A stretch of 30,064 nt of DNA from a virus. This document shows positions 3,655 to 26,879 of the stretch, piece after piece (positions within the stretch are counted from its first letter, which is position 1; each line of letters starts with the position of its first letter). The notes under the pieces were generated by a model. That model was not told the origin of the DNA. It made no database searches and saw nothing but the letters and a program-made list of their open reading frames with translations. The DNA is taken from positions 1 to 30,064 of the IMG/VR virus record IMGVR_UViG_3300031951_000858. One strand, given 5' to 3'. The position numbers and the translations under genes were made by a program.

Positions 3655-4239
3655 TCAGCTAAAATATGAAATGAGGAGAAATGCTCCAGATAAAATCATT
3701 GAATCGGAAAAATCGCCGTTCACGACTTGATTAAAGCCTATCCGAGCTATCTCGGAAGAATCTTTTTCAAAGTTGGATTTTGATAGATTTCTAGTGAATT
3801 CCAACTTGGATTTTGGGCCGGCCAGCTTCGTTAGATCTACCGCAAAGCACTTGAATTTTGAACTAACTGGCACTGAACTAGTTATGTAGCCGAGGTAAAA
3901 AACATCATCTTCAATTACGCCGGCTTCTTCAAGATTGACGCCTGCTTCTTCCAGGAAGAGTCTAAAAACTGCGTCGTACGCTGTTTTGTCCTTACCTGAA
4001 TCAAATGAATCAGTTAAAAGAGTGACGTCCCTTTGACCAGTTGCATGATTATCGAATTTGAGCCCGTAAATCGACTTTATTTTGCCGTCCTGTGAACAAT
4101 CGAATGGTATCACGGCAATGTGGTTTGCTTTACTAACGAGCCTCTCAGCCTTATGTTGTTCTCGACTGAGAGAAACTACGTCAAATTGTCCATTTAGTAT
4201 TGGAGTAACAGTTCTGGTTATCTTAACTGGTGAAAGCAT
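3655..4239 (-). CDS. Nudix-like protein with degenerate catalytic box
   Basis: The protein has 194 residues. Residues 93-101 (RLFLEEAGV) align with the second half of the Nudix box (REUxEExGU), and the surrounding pattern fits: a strand pair before it (HIAVIPFD, then KIKSIYGLKF) and another after it (VFYLGYITS, FKCFAVDL). In active Nudix hydrolases the residue after the Arg is Glu; here it is Leu94, and the upstream Glu of the box is Lys85. Metal binding would rest on Glu97 and Glu98 only. It could be a weak or altered nucleotide-diphosphate hydrolase, or a Nudix fold reused for binding. The start codon overlaps the stop of the upstream gene by one base (TAATG), implying coupled translation. 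The gene itself is secure; the family is moderately supported and activity is doubtful. Confidence 0.72.
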   Translation of the reverse strand: MLSPVKITRTVTPILNGQFDVVSLSREQHKAERLVSKANHIAVIPFDCSQDGKIKSIYGLKFDNHATGQRDVTLLTDSFDSGKDKTAYDAVFRLFLEEAGVNLEEAGVIEDDVFYLGYITSSVPVSSKFKCFAVDLTKLAGPKSKLEFTRNLSKSNFEKDSSEIARIGFNQVVNGDFSDSMILSGAFLLISYFS

Positions 4240-4868
4240 TAAACCTTTTTCTTTTTATCCGGGTCAAGGCTCTTTTTCATTGATGATTTAATGGACTCGA
4301 CCGTTACATTATTATTTATATAGGCTGAGAGCTTATTCAAAAATTCATCCTTGTCTTGAGAGTTTGAGTACATCATCTTTAGCAAGGTTTTCGCAGGTAA
4401 TTTGATTGAAACGGTTAAATTCAAGTCTGTTTCTTCTAAAGAAAACATTCCAAAAAGATCTCCAGGATCGGATGATCTAGTATCAGCTTGAGAAGGCTGA
4501 GGTGTCTCAATCTTTTTCTGAACAACTCTTTGTTCCAGTATTTCCTTAGCAACGTCAGTTGGAATATCGGATGAAACGCTAAGCGGCTCATCTATACTAG
4601 GCACTTCGTTAATTGAAAGTATTTCGGATATTGACATAGCCGGCTGATCATCCATAATCATCATAAGGCTATTTGTTAGCTGGTCGGTCGGTAGACGCGT
4701 TCCGTCCGATAACTGCGCAATAAAACTGCCTCTATTTCCAGGTAAAACGTCTGTTACTTGAACTATTTTTCCAAGTTTTGCGCGGTCGGATGTCTTAACC
4801 CATTGAAAATTGTTTCCCCTAAAAGTATCTTTAATTGACATTAGGGAATCGATGTCGTAACCTGTCAT
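4239..4868 (-). CDS. Unknown protein directly downstream of the polymerase fragment
   Basis: I start it at the ATG at 4866-4868, giving 209 residues and a 7-nt gap after the polymerase stop. A TTG farther upstream at 4919 would add 17 residues that overlap the polymerase coding end and are only K/R/L-rich. Residues about 20-70 look like a small beta-barrel (GKIVQVTDV, then FIAQLSDGTRLPTDQL), similar in pattern to KOW/SH3-type folds. The middle (about 85-140) is rich in S, E, P, Q and T and probably disordered. The C-terminal part contains helices and ends in a lysine run (DPDKKKKV). It shows none of the PolB motifs B or C, so it is not the missing half of the polymerase, but being adjacent it could act with it. 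Function unknown. Confidence 0.75.
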   Translation of the reverse strand: MTGYDIDSLMSIKDTFRGNNFQWVKTSDRAKLGKIVQVTDVLPGNRGSFIAQLSDGTRLPTDQLTNSLMMIMDDQPAMSISEILSINEVPSIDEPLSVSSDIPTDVAKEILEQRVVQKKIETPQPSQADTRSSDPGDLFGMFSLEETDLNLTVSIKLPAKTLLKMMYSNSQDKDEFLNKLSAYINNNVTVESIKSSMKKSLDPDKKKKV

Positions 4869-4875
4869 AAACTTC

Positions 4876-6267
4876 TTAAGTATTTTTAGTAGTTTTTTCA
4901 CCTTGCGCCTGGTCTTCAAGAACCTTCATTTCTTTTTTAGTTTCAACTCGGCCGTTATACAGTCGAGTCAAGATTGCTCTTGCCGCTGAATCGAACTTTT
5001 TGGTGAAAATCGTATTATTTTTGGTTATTACAGTATCGTCAGTTTGAGCAGTAGAGGGCGAGGTTTTGCCTAAGTATGCATCTGGCGAAATGTTAAACTG
5101 TATTTGTATGTTTGGATACATTGAGGCAAAGTCAAAACAGGAAACATACTTATAGTAGCCTGGTTTGGGCTCAGCGACGTACGCGCCGTCATAGGTTGCT
5201 TCTTTTTCAACTTCACGACGATCGCTGGCCATGTACTTGCCTCTTTCTAAGAACTCTCGACACATGAGAGTTTCGGTAATATAAACAGCGCTAAACACTT
5301 TTGAAACATCAACTTTTGCAAACTTAGAGATTGCGAAAGCAACGTCAAGTAGACCAAGCTTATCTTCAATAAGCTTTACTAGAATTGTATCAATGATGTT
5401 ATACTTTACGAAATTTTCAACGTCCTGCTGAGCTTCCATCATGCTACTGTACTCATGATGAAGCTTTCGCGTACCTAGAACTAAATTTGCAATATAGTCG
5501 AGACGATAGTTTTCAACAACTTTATATGGCTTGGTGTTCATAAAAACTTCCATGTAATCCAATAGACCTAAGTGAATTGGTAGCTTTGCTTGACCGATTG
5601 TTTTTTTACATGGCATTGTCTGCATGGGCTCAATATTCAACCGCTTGCACCGGTTCAGAAGATAAATCCAGTCAAAGTTAATAACATTCCACCCTGTTAA
5701 AAAAGGAATTTTCGGCAAAACCTTATGAAAGAACGTTTGCATGAGCGAAACCTCATTCTCAAAAAAGAGATACTTTATTGTAAACTTTTGACCATGCGCA
5801 ATAAAGTATTCGTTAACTTCTGATTCCATTTGAGAAACGACATTTTGCTCAAGAGACTTCATTGTCGACATTACAAAGCAAACATTGTCCTCATTAACAA
5901 AGGTTATGAGATTGACTGGCATAAGAGCCTTGGCTGGATCTGGGAAATCGTTTGAGGTAAGCTGAATCTCAATATCCAAGTAGTATTTCTTTGGACTTAG
6001 ATCAGAGTATATCATATCGAGTTCAGATTGACTTAGCCTAGTTTGAGTTAACTCTTCTAATCTGAACCGGCTTAGCCATTTATTGGGGGATTTCTTAAGA
6101 AAACGGTTATCCCAATTTCTGAATTCAGTTGGATTTGGAGTTAAGACCCAGTTAAATAGATCGTGCTGCTGAATGGGTTTCTTAATGAAAGCAATGTTAC
6201 CAGTTTCATCGTAATATGATATTACGAGGGTTGAGTCATTGCCGTTAAATTCTGTGCTAACTATCAT
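4876..6267 (-). CDS. 43A: N-terminal part of family-B DNA polymerase (split gp43)
   Basis: It corresponds to the first half of T4 gp43: N-terminal domain, 3'-5' exonuclease and the beginning of the palm. Exonuclease motifs are intact: Exo I DIE at 98-100, Exo II GWNVINFD with Asp199, and Exo III YNIID at 289-293. The GAYVAEP segment (361-367) and palm motif A (DFASMYPNI from Asp379) follow. The frame then enters the region equivalent to the start of the fingers (ILTRLYNGRVETKKEMK) and stops at residue 463; T4 gp43 has 898. Motif B (KxxxNSxYG) and motif C (DTDS) are absent here and from everything downstream in the window. A single frameshift cannot explain this, because no polymerase sequence follows in another frame. 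A split gene is most likely, as known for some Aeromonas T4-like phages. Confidence 0.9.
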   Translation of the reverse strand: MIVSTEFNGNDSTLVISYYDETGNIAFIKKPIQQHDLFNWVLTPNPTEFRNWDNRFLKKSPNKWLSRFRLEELTQTRLSQSELDMIYSDLSPKKYYLDIEIQLTSNDFPDPAKALMPVNLITFVNEDNVCFVMSTMKSLEQNVVSQMESEVNEYFIAHGQKFTIKYLFFENEVSLMQTFFHKVLPKIPFLTGWNVINFDWIYLLNRCKRLNIEPMQTMPCKKTIGQAKLPIHLGLLDYMEVFMNTKPYKVVENYRLDYIANLVLGTRKLHHEYSSMMEAQQDVENFVKYNIIDTILVKLIEDKLGLLDVAFAISKFAKVDVSKVFSAVYITETLMCREFLERGKYMASDRREVEKEATYDGAYVAEPKPGYYKYVSCFDFASMYPNIQIQFNISPDAYLGKTSPSTAQTDDTVITKNNTIFTKKFDSAARAILTRLYNGRVETKKEMKVLEDQAQGEKTTKNT

Positions 6268-6296: not shown

Positions 6297-6776
6297 CTAA
6301 TATCCACGACGTTGGCGGTCACGGTTCTCTGCGTTTTTTGCAGCATAATAGTTTGTGATGGTTTCCGGCGTAAGGCCAATCGCAATCGCTTCATTAAGCA
6401 TGAAATGCAGCTTATCGATCCACTCGTATTGTAATTCCTTAAGCTCATCTTGAGTCAAGGCAGATAGAGGCCTATCCATTGCCTCATGGTGCTTACTTTT
6501 CCAAGGTTTCCAACAACCTGGATAGGTATGGATCCCGGTTAAGGCTGCTTGAAACTCGCGATCCTCATCACGAATAGCCTCTTCGTTCCAATCAATAAAT
6601 TTCTTTAGATTTCGAATGCTTGACCTAATTTCTGTGAAGTTGTGGCCGTAGACTTCTTCTTGAATGCCTTTTTGCAAGTTAAACAGAAAGGCCAGGGAAT
6701 CTTCGCCTTTTTCTCTAATTTCTGAATATTCGTCATGCACTTCAAGCTGTGCGCACTGCTGAAAGTTATTTTCCAT
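6297..6776 (-). CDS. 56: dCTPase/dUTPase, gp56 type
   Basis: This all-alpha nucleotide pyrophosphatase hydrolyses dCTP and dUTP (and the diphosphates in T4) to dCMP and dUMP. The protein has 159 residues; T4 gp56 has 171. The match is strongest at the C-terminus, where WIDKLHFMLNEAIAIGL and then YYAAKNAENRDRQRRGY follow the T4 pattern (IDQFHFFMN..IALGM; YYLKNAENFARQDRGY). The central WKPWK (residues 91-95) is also shared. The metal-binding acidic residues probably lie in the EEAIRDEDREF helix (about 65-75) and in the WIDKLHF helix. It is the first gene of the minus-strand replication block, 29 nt before the polymerase gene. A TATAAT box 27 nt upstream may be its promoter. In T4 this enzyme keeps cytosine out of DNA that carries hydroxymethylcytosine. 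Confidence 0.9.
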   Translation of the reverse strand: MENNFQQCAQLEVHDEYSEIREKGEDSLAFLFNLQKGIQEEVYGHNFTEIRSSIRNLKKFIDWNEEAIRDEDREFQAALTGIHTYPGCWKPWKSKHHEAMDRPLSALTQDELKELQYEWIDKLHFMLNEAIAIGLTPETITNYYAAKNAENRDRQRRGY

Positions 6777-10102: not shown

Positions 10103-10693
10103 TTACTTTTTGCTCAACGTGGAAATAATATCCTCGAGCACTCTAATTGTATCAGTTGAGTCAGTATGTAATACCCCGGTTCCGCCAGCTTCGACCCACT
10201 TATCAATCTTTTCCCGAGTATCATCAATTAAAATATCGGTTGCACCTTTTGCGAATTTATACTTGTAGCGGCTAAGGATTATTCGGCTGTCTTCTTCCCA
10301 TTTCTTAGAGGATTTAGTTGGCTCAGCTTGATTAATACCAAGGTTTCGCTTAATCCACTTCATTTTGCCGTCGATCGAGTTTTTACTACGGCTTGGTGAG
10401 CTTAATATTATTGGATCGTAGCGCCTAATATAATCCCAAAGCGCGCGGCCGTCTCTTTTCCAACGTAAATTTGCCCAAAAAGACTCTCCTTCATCATCAA
10501 TAATACTCCACATCTTTTCAAGGCCGTGCTTCTTTTCATACTCGCTAGGGCTTAGCTTATCATCATTTGCATCCAATTTCTTAAAACCACGATTAAAATC
10601 GACAAGAACCCCATCCAGATCGCAGTAGACTTTAACGTCTACTTGAGCCTCATCAGTTTCTTCAGTTAAAAATTGGGTAAATGATTTAAGCAT
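10103..10693 (-). CDS. HAD-family phosphatase with capsid-targeting-like N-terminus
   Basis: HAD motif I is YCDLDGVLVDF with Asp25 (nucleophile) and Asp27. Motif II is ILSSPS (Ser98/99). A Lys before EEDSR is a motif III candidate, and motif IV is ILIDDTREKI with Asp157 and Asp158. This fits small phosphatases such as 5'(3')-deoxyribonucleotidases, with nucleoside monophosphates the likely but unproven substrates. I start it at ATG 10691-10693 (196 residues); a GTG two codons upstream is possible. The ATG overlaps the GroES stop (ATGCTTAA). The first 11 residues (MLKSFTQFLTE) closely resemble T4 internal-protein leaders (MKTYQEFIAE) that target proteins to the prohead and are cut by gp21 after L/I-x-E. 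A late-type promoter element lies 31 nt upstream, inside groES. Catalytic family secure; packaging is an inference. Confidence 0.85.
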   Translation of the reverse strand: MLKSFTQFLTEETDEAQVDVKVYCDLDGVLVDFNRGFKKLDANDDKLSPSEYEKKHGLEKMWSIIDDEGESFWANLRWKRDGRALWDYIRRYDPIILSSPSRSKNSIDGKMKWIKRNLGINQAEPTKSSKKWEEDSRIILSRYKYKFAKGATDILIDDTREKIDKWVEAGGTGVLHTDSTDTIRVLEDIISTLSKK

Positions 10694-11009
10694 AGTCACT
10701 TATTTCAATAGACGTTCCTGCATCTTTATTTATTATTGCGACCAGGTCATTTGCCATTACTAGATGATGCAAGTCCCCGTTAACTTTGACGTCCATTCCG
10801 GAATATCTTAGATAAAGAACTTGGTCTCCAGCTTTAATTGGACATTCGCTGTTTTTTGAAACCATGTGGCCTATCGCTACAACTGTCCCTGAGTTTGGGC
10901 GCTTACGTGATTCGACTGGTAGTATTATACCTGTCTCAGTTTGAGTCTCAACCATGTTGGGCTTAACTAGGACTCTTTCAAATAGTGGAATAAATTCTGA
11001 ACTTTCCAT
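10686..11009 (-). CDS. groES: GroES-like co-chaperonin
   Basis: It caps the chaperonin ring to form the folding chamber. The 107-residue protein follows the GroES pattern from end to end: FIPLFERVLVKPNMVETQTE at the N-terminus, then the mobile loop region TGIILPVESRKRPNSG (about 26-41), GTVVAIG, GDQVLYLRYSGMDVKVNG and a final LVMANDLVAII. T4 supplies only a distant GroES analogue, gp31, which works with host GroEL. This protein looks closer to bacterial GroES, and a phage GroEL gene is also present about 13.5 kb away. The start codon overlaps the RNase H stop by one base (TAATG) and its stop overlaps the HAD start, so all three are probably translated in a coupled way. The C-terminal extension (NKDAGTSIEISDYA) is not in E. 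coli GroES. Confidence 0.9.
   Translation of the reverse strand: MESSEFIPLFERVLVKPNMVETQTETGIILPVESRKRPNSGTVVAIGHMVSKNSECPIKAGDQVLYLRYSGMDVKVNGDLHHLVMANDLVAIINKDAGTSIEISDYA
10725..10734 (-). promoter_or_regulatory. Internal late promoter candidate for the HAD gene
   Basis: On the minus strand AATAAATAAA lies inside the 3' end of groES, 31 nt before the HAD start. It matches the window's late element in nine of ten positions. It is also coding sequence (codons for I-N-K), so chance is harder to exclude than for the intergenic copies. Confidence 0.4.
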
Positions 11010-24547: not shown

Positions 24548-26125
<1,578 letters not shown>

Positions 26126-26135
26126 CTAATATTTT

Positions 26136-26879
26136 TTACTTAAATATTATATTAGACTTTTCCAATCGGTTTAGGTTAGAGAGTTTAATGATTACCTGGA
26201 TTAGCGCAATGACATCTCTTTGACAGTATTCTCTAATTTTGTCAATATTCCCTAGGTAAAAATTAGAGTGAACGTCTGACCCTTTCATGTCTTCCTTTGG
26301 CGAATCAATTCCTAGAACTGTTGATAAAAGGTCAAGGGATGTGAATCCTTCTTGCCATGCACCAAAGCTCCAAAGCTCAGAAGTATCGACTAGAGCGGTT
26401 TCCCAAGGTTTTTTATCCCAAACTTGTAAAATTTGAGGAATTTCATGACCAGTTATGAACGCTCTCTTACACAAGAATGGTACATCAAATCTTTTGATAT
26501 TATGGCCGATTAATTTTATGCCGGACCTACTTAAACCGTTAATTAGTTTAAGAGACTGTGACAAAATCTCTTCCTCTGTTCCAGAATATGACACTATTTG
26601 AGCAATGGGATCGCCTGCTTCATCAAATTTAACTTTTCCAAAAGAAATGCAAACGATTCTTCCAAATTCTGCTTGTAAAGCTGCTTTTTCAATGAAAAGA
26701 TCATTATCTGACTTCCCTAAATTATCTGGGTATTTAGCAGATAGATGATCTCTTAAGAAAGTTGCTCGGTCTGACCATAAATTCGCTAATTTTGGTGAAA
26801 TACTTGATAAGTCTTCAGCTTGACCGGCTGTTTCAATATCAAAGAATAAAAATTTTTCTATTTGTGAAGGAACAAACAT
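26136..26879 (-). CDS. PolB-type 3'-5' exonuclease (stand-alone)
   Basis: The 247-residue protein has the DEDDy exonuclease motifs: Exo I FFDIETAG (Asp14, Glu16), Exo II GHNIKRFDVPFL (Asp132), Exo III YCQRDV (Tyr218, Asp222). The spacing and the long insert after Exo I match the family of predicted exonucleases related to the PolB proofreading domain. It degrades single-stranded 3' ends, probably in repair, or possibly in proofreading. It is the first gene of a minus-strand unit (exonuclease > groEL), divergent from the RuvC-like gene. The split polymerase in this window already has its own intact exonuclease motifs, so this one is not a simple replacement. Good family call; pathway unknown. 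Confidence 0.88.
   Translation of the reverse strand: MFVPSQIEKFLFFDIETAGQAEDLSSISPKLANLWSDRATFLRDHLSAKYPDNLGKSDNDLFIEKAALQAEFGRIVCISFGKVKFDEAGDPIAQIVSYSGTEEEILSQSLKLINGLSRSGIKLIGHNIKRFDVPFLCKRAFITGHEIPQILQVWDKKPWETALVDTSELWSFGAWQEGFTSLDLLSTVLGIDSPKEDMKGSDVHSNFYLGNIDKIREYCQRDVIALIQVIIKLSNLNRLEKSNIIFK
26146..26151 (-). promoter_or_regulatory. Possible -10 box of groEL
   Basis: TATAAT on the minus strand 26 nt before the groEL start, overlapping the last codons of the exonuclease gene. Spacing resembles the boxes before gp56 and the S1-like gene. No clear -35. Confidence 0.25.

What the first reader, a model, noticed from the sequence alone, without database searches (positions are those of the whole stretch)
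4876..6267. DNA polymerase gene broken just after palm motif A
All three exonuclease motifs and palm motif A (Asp379) are intact, but the frame ends at residue 463, where the fingers begin in T4 gp43. No motif B or C occurs in the following gene or anywhere else in the window. The following gene is packed 7 nt away with an unrelated product, so this is an evolved gene boundary, not a decayed tail or sequencing slip. Split gp43 is known in some Aeromonas T4-like phages, and a polymerase/exonuclease separation is known in Rhodothermus phage RM378. Here the palm itself is divided, so the active site must be assembled from two proteins. No intein sequence is visible at the end, which argues against protein trans-splicing.
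Basis: partly seen in the sequence, partly recalled or inferred. Interest (0 to 1): 0.75.

Follow-up and report, generated by a model that had tools for sequence, protein, structure and literature searches.

The report
Phage DNA polymerase split at fingertip
This phage makes its replicative DNA polymerase as two separate proteins broken at the tip of the 'fingers', and the same break runs through a whole deep branch of large bacterial viruses (Lak megaphages and a 735-kb phage among them), where it apparently arose once; a similar break was known only in a few Aeromonas phages.

Summary
Confirmed, and larger than reported. Minus strand 6267-4876 is an intact 463-aa N-terminal half of a T4-type family-B polymerase (exonuclease + palm motif A). 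The window is a 30-kb fragment without the other half, but that half exists. Eighteen longer IMG/VR contigs carry both halves, 39-58 kb apart on one strand. The C-half starts 17-21 aa before motif B (KILINSFYG) and has DTDS and thumb. One contig closes as a ~271-kb circle with exactly two DNA_pol_B matches. The halves tile Pfam DNA_pol_B (17-145; 144-450).

About 58 distinct N-halves and 59 C-halves are all split there. So are 80 more distant contigs, Lak phages, 462-735-kb huge phages, Chryseobacterium phage MA9V-2 and phage PAU. They form one tree branch, with whole-polymerase Flavobacterium phage MaF61 at its base; Aeromonas 44RR and a Vibrio phage split separately. dN/dS is 0.02-0.10 and N/C distances correlate at r=0.99, so the enzyme is live. 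No intein or intron lies at the break. Best reading: non-covalent heterodimer, as for Aeromonas 43A/43B. No paper read describes this ancient split.

The parts
4876..6267 (-). N-terminal half of a split T4-type family-B DNA polymerase (463 aa): N-terminal domain, 3'-5' exonuclease (D98/E100, D199, D293), palm motif A (D379), first finger helix; stops at the fingertip
   Evidence: Pfam PF00136 positions 17-145 and PF03104; phrog_2062 and phrog_262 positions 74-495
4876..4965 (-). Break region: first finger helix and charged tail (..LTRLYNGRVETKKEMKVLEDQAQGEKTTKNT*); a helix 428-462 is predicted; no intein motif
   Evidence: all 58 distinct relatives end 70-104 aa after motif A
4239..4868 (-). 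Following gene (209 aa), starts 7 nt after the polymerase stop; unrelated to polymerase, conserved next to the N-half in nearly all relatives checked
6297..6776 (-). Preceding gene (159 aa), nucleoside triphosphate pyrophosphohydrolase / dUTPase-like
   Evidence: phrog_173, phrog_18650

Best explanation
The gene makes the N-terminal chain of a two-chain replicative DNA polymerase. The partner chain is encoded elsewhere in the phage genome (about 40-55 kb downstream on the same strand in close relatives; outside this 30-kb fragment) and carries the second finger helix with motif B, motif C (DTDS), the rest of the palm, the thumb and a C-terminal extension. The break is in the turn at the tip of the fingers, the exposed end of a helical hairpin, so each chain contributes one helix of the finger hairpin and one part of the palm. 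The two chains fold together, without protein or RNA splicing, into an ordinary proofreading PolB: motif A Asp (chain 1) and motif C Asp (chain 2) hold the catalytic metals, motif B Lys (chain 2) binds the dNTP, chain 1 proofreads. Shown: both genes, the tiling, intact catalytic residues, purifying selection, matched evolution of the halves, and no other PolB, PolA or PolIII-alpha in the genomes searched. Inferred: physical assembly and activity. Evolution (inferred from a tree): the gene broke once in an ancestor of a deep branch of large, mainly Bacteroidota-linked phages, and the halves later drifted to unlinked places, in some phages onto opposite strands.
For: Both halves on 18 contigs, same strand, N upstream, 39-58 kb (coordinates); a circular ~271-kb genome (126-bp end overlap, junction continuous at 100% in a second contig) with exactly two PF00136 matches; no PolA or PolIII-alpha in four genomes of 208-270 kb. 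Tiling: N-half = PF00136 17-145, C-half = 144-450; phrog_262 74-495 and 500-838; against Tgo polymerase N-half to residue 473, C-half from 477. 58 distinct N-halves without motif B/C; 59 distinct C-halves, none with motif A, all with DTDS; all 80 further contigs split. dN/dS 0.02-0.10 in both halves; N/C distance matrices r=0.989, 0 of 5000 permutations. N-half alone is predicted with a confident exonuclease (pLDDT to 97) but an unfolded palm part (30-60), and the C-half's finger/palm part is also low, as expected of obligate partners; the folds match RB69/T4 gp43. Aeromonas phage 25 43A and 43B co-purify and have polymerase activity (PMC2988022). No Rfam intron in the window or in four half-bearing loci.
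Against: The window's own C-half is not in the fragment, so its presence here is by homology. No complex was modelled (only single-chain prediction available) and low pLDDT with 21-28 sequences can also mean a shallow alignment. No expression or biochemical data exist for this lineage.
Confidence: 0.88

Rival explanations
1. The two halves are joined covalently: by a split intein at the protein level or by trans-splicing of split group I/II introns at the RNA level.
For: Split inteins do join other parts of this enzyme in related phages (motif C site in LR756500 and Lak), and Aeromonas phages carry a split intein in PolB (PMC11923092).
Against: No intein motif at the end of any of 58 N-halves or the start of 59 C-halves; the ends are short charged tails and an ATG 17-21 aa before motif B. 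No Rfam intron near either half. In LR756504, LR756502, LR756501, Lak-A2 and G020 the halves lie on opposite strands.
Confidence: 0.04
2. The N-half is a decayed remnant or works alone as an exonuclease, while replication uses another polymerase.
For: The N-half alone holds a complete exonuclease domain, and AlphaFold models that domain confidently on its own.
Against: Motif A Asp and the palm/finger helix are conserved and under strong purifying selection; the C-half is found in nearly every large contig searched of the window's clade; no PolA, PolIII-alpha or whole PolB found.
Confidence: 0.05
3. Assembly break, deletion or frameshift error in a normally continuous gene.
For: The window is a metagenomic fragment.
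Against: The same boundary and the same following gene in dozens of independent assemblies from many samples; also in isolates MA9V-2 and PAU and complete Lak genomes.
Confidence: 0.01

Closest known systems
Aeromonas T4-like phages 44RR2.8t / 25: gp43 split into 43A and 43B (Petrov et al.; reviewed in PMC2988022)
   Same: T4-type PolB cut in the fingertip; exonuclease + motif A on one chain, motif B + C + thumb on the other; no splicing of the halves at the break. Phage 25 halves co-purify and are active.
   Different: In 44RR the halves are neighbours (49 nt apart), and in phage 25 a seg homing endonuclease gene or untranslated insert sits at the break; here they are 39-58 kb apart and in other lineages on opposite strands. 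The tree puts 44RR next to T4, so it is an independent split.
PHROG families phrog_2062 (N-only, 502 positions) and phrog_1918 (C-only, 382 positions), both 'DNA polymerase'
   Same: The two halves of this lineage match separate families already in databases.
   Different: Nothing in the library says they are two halves of one enzyme.
Moraphages (aquatic jumbo phages, PMC12619734)
   Same: Freshwater large phages with two separate 'DNA-directed DNA polymerase' orthologous groups (VOG00275, VOG00710) in most genomes, consistent with a split PolB.
   Different: The paper does not mention a split; whether the window is a moraphage was not tested.
Archaeal split PolB (Methanothermobacter, Nanoarchaeum) and Rhodothermus phage RM378 (from memory)
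   Same: Family-B polymerase made from two genes.
   Different: From memory: Nanoarchaeum joins its parts by a split intein, Methanothermobacter breaks after motif B, and RM378 separates exonuclease from a whole polymerase domain. Not tested here.

Membership tests
T4-type family-B DNA polymerase (gp43) | Exonuclease motifs I-III (T4 D112/E114, D219, D324) | tested here: met
   D98/E100, D199, D293 aligned and conserved
T4-type family-B DNA polymerase (gp43) | Motif A Asp (T4 D408) | tested here: met
   D379, invariant in 21 aligned relatives
T4-type family-B DNA polymerase (gp43) | Motif B KxxxNSxYG and motif C DTDS | tested here: inconclusive
   Absent from the window fragment; present in the partner gene of relatives with longer contigs
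T4-type family-B DNA polymerase (gp43) | Fold match to RB69/T4 gp43 | tested here: met
   Foldseek best hits RB69/T4 gp43 for N-half (E 5e-22) and C-half (E 1.6e-7)
Split gp43 (43A/43B type) | Break in the fingertip, both finger helices kept | tested here: met
   N-half ends after the first helix, C-half starts 17-21 aa before motif B; 44RR break in the same place
Split gp43 (43A/43B type) | Halves adjacent, separated by an endonuclease gene or untranslated insert | tested here: not met
   39-58 kb apart in the window clade, opposite strands in LR756504, Lak-A2, LR756501
Split gp43 (43A/43B type) | Halves assemble and polymerise | not testable with these tools
   Needs co-expression; shown only for phage 25 (PMC2988022)
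Split-intein polymerase (trans-spliced) | Intein N- and C-fragments at the break | tested here: not met
   No intein motif at the break in any half; a Pfam intein domain occurs only at the motif C site of some relatives

The most novel reading that the evidence does not exclude
A single ancient fingertip break made the two-chain polymerase the standard replicase of a deep phage branch that includes the largest phages known, and the free, unlinked halves are put to use: unequal supply or reversible dissociation of the chains lets the exonuclease chain act separately or lets the phage control when an active replicase forms.
Probability: 0.12. Interest if true: 0.8.

Novelty: new variant of a known kind. 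Interest (0 to 1): 0.57.

Why it matters
A replicative polymerase is among the most constrained of enzymes; a whole branch of large phages has kept it in two unlinked pieces, stably, since an ancient break. It shows that the fingertip, which moves on every nucleotide added, tolerates a chain break that evolution has fixed at least three times. It gives many natural split polymerases, useful for two-component enzymes, and it explains why these genomes appear to have two 'partial' DNA polymerases in automated annotation. It also warns against marker-gene trees and completeness checks that treat the pieces as separate genes or as broken ones.

Tried and rejected
Looked for the C-half in the window (six frames, tblastn: none) and for a second polymerase in whole relatives (PolA, PolIII-alpha: none). 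Considered a sequencing or assembly slip, gene decay, intein and intron joining; each rejected on the evidence above. A shared promoter-like element (TTTAGTACAAT) before both halves was examined: present before some N- and C-halves and some other genes but not consistent, so not used. Marine virus AG-345-P14 first looked split by its tblastn range but is whole. Ackermannviridae phage KWBSE43-6 is whole. Whole-alignment end mapping onto T4 gave scattered last residues, so break positions rest on local alignments. Literature checked for a prior description: huge-phage, Lak, marine megaphage, jumbo-phage and PolB-diversity papers do not mention it; subscription papers could not be searched.

Full report
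WHAT IS THERE. The ORF at 4876-6267 is real and on the minus strand: 463 aa, ATG to TAA. Pfam sees the PolB exonuclease domain (PF03104) and the first part of DNA_pol_B (PF00136 positions 17-145 of 453). Best solved relatives are RB69/T4 gp43 and archaeal PolBs. All exonuclease carboxylates and motif A Asp379 are present. The next gene starts 7 nt on and has no recognisable family. Motifs B and C are nowhere in the window and the C-half query finds nothing in it. The window is an IMG/VR fragment of 30,064 bases, so absence here means little by itself.

THE MISSING HALF EXISTS. A scan of IMG/VR with the protein found 57 loci, all ending at the same place. In longer contigs PF00136 finds a second ORF with the rest of the enzyme: it starts with ATG 17-21 residues before motif B, reads e.g. 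MSKQLEQQIKSLDLKQNAIKILINSFYGAFGN..., carries YTDTDS and the thumb, and continues into a 100-170 aa extension. Across the scans 58 distinct N-half proteins all end 70-104 residues after motif A with no motif B or C, and 59 distinct C-halves contain no motif A. From the coordinates, eighteen contigs hold both halves, always on one strand, N first, 39-58 kb start to start. One contig (G003, 271,290 bases) overlaps itself by 126 bases at its ends and both ends match a continuous stretch of another contig at 100%: a closed genome of about 271 kb with exactly two DNA_pol_B matches. No PolA or PolIII-alpha was found in four such genomes.

WHERE THE CUT IS. The N-half covers DNA_pol_B positions 17-145 and the C-half 144-450; on whole-polymerase PHROG 262 they cover 74-495 and 500-838; on Tgo polymerase, which has a short fingertip, up to 473 and from 477. 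Nothing conserved is lost: the cut replaces the turn of the finger hairpin. Compared with T4, only the long T4-specific fingertip (roughly T4 503-537, counted by hand from the sequence) is absent.

IT IS A LIVE ENZYME. dN/dS between close pairs is 0.02-0.04 for the N-half and 0.02-0.10 for the C-half; pairwise distances of N-halves and C-halves over 13 contigs correlate at r=0.989 (0 of 5000 permutations as high). The following gene is conserved beside the N-half in 22 of 23 relatives checked, so the boundary is old. The C-half gene overlaps a DNA primase gene and lies near a helicase gene, the N-half lies near RecA-like and DnaB-like genes: both sit among replication genes. AlphaFold folds the exonuclease part of the N-half well but leaves its palm part (331-463) at pLDDT 30-60, and the C-half's finger and palm parts (8-50, 150-203) low while its thumb is good. 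This is what obligate partners would show, although the alignments were shallow.

HOW IT MOST LIKELY WORKS (inference from the above). The two chains bind through the finger helices and the palm and form an ordinary proofreading PolB. Splicing is unlikely: there is no intein at either end, no Rfam intron in the window or in the half-bearing loci, and in some relatives the halves are on opposite strands (LR756504, LR756502, Lak-A2; G020 and LR756501). Precedent: Aeromonas phage 25 43A and 43B co-purify and polymerise (PMC2988022).

HOW WIDE AND HOW OLD. A profile scan seeded with megaphage sequences returned 80 more contigs (up to 436 kb), all split, many with the C-half 4-6 kb downstream. Also split: LR756500, LR756501, LR756502, LR756504 (462-735 kb), Lak phages in code 15, Chryseobacterium phage MA9V-2 (a TnpB gene and two others between), and Sphingomonas phage PAU (gp105 and gp110). 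In a 39-row tree 29 split rows fall on one branch, with Flavobacterium phage MaF61, whose polymerase is whole (994 aa), at its base. Aeromonas 44RR and Vibrio phage 2.058.O are separate splits among whole T4-like and cyanophage enzymes; at least three changes are forced by supported branches. MaF61, PAU and Lak are long branches, so 'once' is the best reading, not proof.

WHAT IS KNOWN. Split gp43 is known in Aeromonas phages (PMC2988022, PMC2993671). PHROGs holds N-only and C-only families, and the moraphage paper lists two DNA polymerase groups without comment. Papers on huge phages, Lak, marine megaphages, jumbo phages and PolB diversity do not mention the split. So this is a new, large, independently arisen variant of a known kind, rather than a new kind.

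LIMITS. The window's own C-half was not seen; no two-chain model or experiment was possible; only open-access papers were searched.

Noticed in passing
L156 4414-5199 and 1784-2737 (LR756500); L157 5025-5843 and 2073-3047 (Lak-B2); L153 4887-5708 and 6049-7038 (Lak-A2): In these huge phages the C-half is broken a second time, inside motif C (DTD/S), by what looks like a split intein (Pfam Intein_splicing on the N-fragment; C-fragment ends ..VHN or ..AHN followed by S), with nuclease-like genes between the fragments. The polymerase would then come from three genes, two of them joined by trans-splicing.
   Followed up: partly
L148 1496-3652 (IMGVR_UViG_3300032242_002192): A member of the window's own clade has an in-frame mini-intein (PF14890) at the same DTD/S site of its C-half: a cis version of the split intein in Lak.
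   Followed up: partly
L094 6072-6342 (Vibrio phage 2.058.O): Its C-half is itself interrupted by a group I intron (RF00028) between the 48-aa ORF NVP2058O_109 and NVP2058O_108.
   Followed up: partly
L321 5962-8946 (Flavobacterium phage MaF61): Whole 994-aa polymerase at the base of the split branch, with a long fingertip; beside chaperonin and tail sheath genes, gene kinds that the window also carries.
   Followed up: partly
L312 4007-5173 (Chryseobacterium phage MA9V-2): A TnpB-family RNA-guided endonuclease gene lies between the two polymerase halves.
   Followed up: no
window 26136-26879 (-): A separate PolB-like 3'-5' exonuclease (PF10108) is encoded 20 kb from the N-half.
   Followed up: no
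L107 7100-7455 and equivalents: C-halves of this clade have a 100-170 aa C-terminal extension beyond the usual PolB end; some end in QISF or VELKF, which may be a clamp-binding tail.
   Followed up: no
window 24548-26119 (-) and 10686-11009 (-): Phage-encoded GroEL-like and GroES-like proteins (judged by eye from the sequence).
   Followed up: no
window upstream of 6267, 13460 and 27087; L039 and L042 upstream of the N-half: A recurring AGTACAAT-like element before several genes, possibly a phage promoter; genes lack clear Shine-Dalgarno sites.
   Followed up: partly
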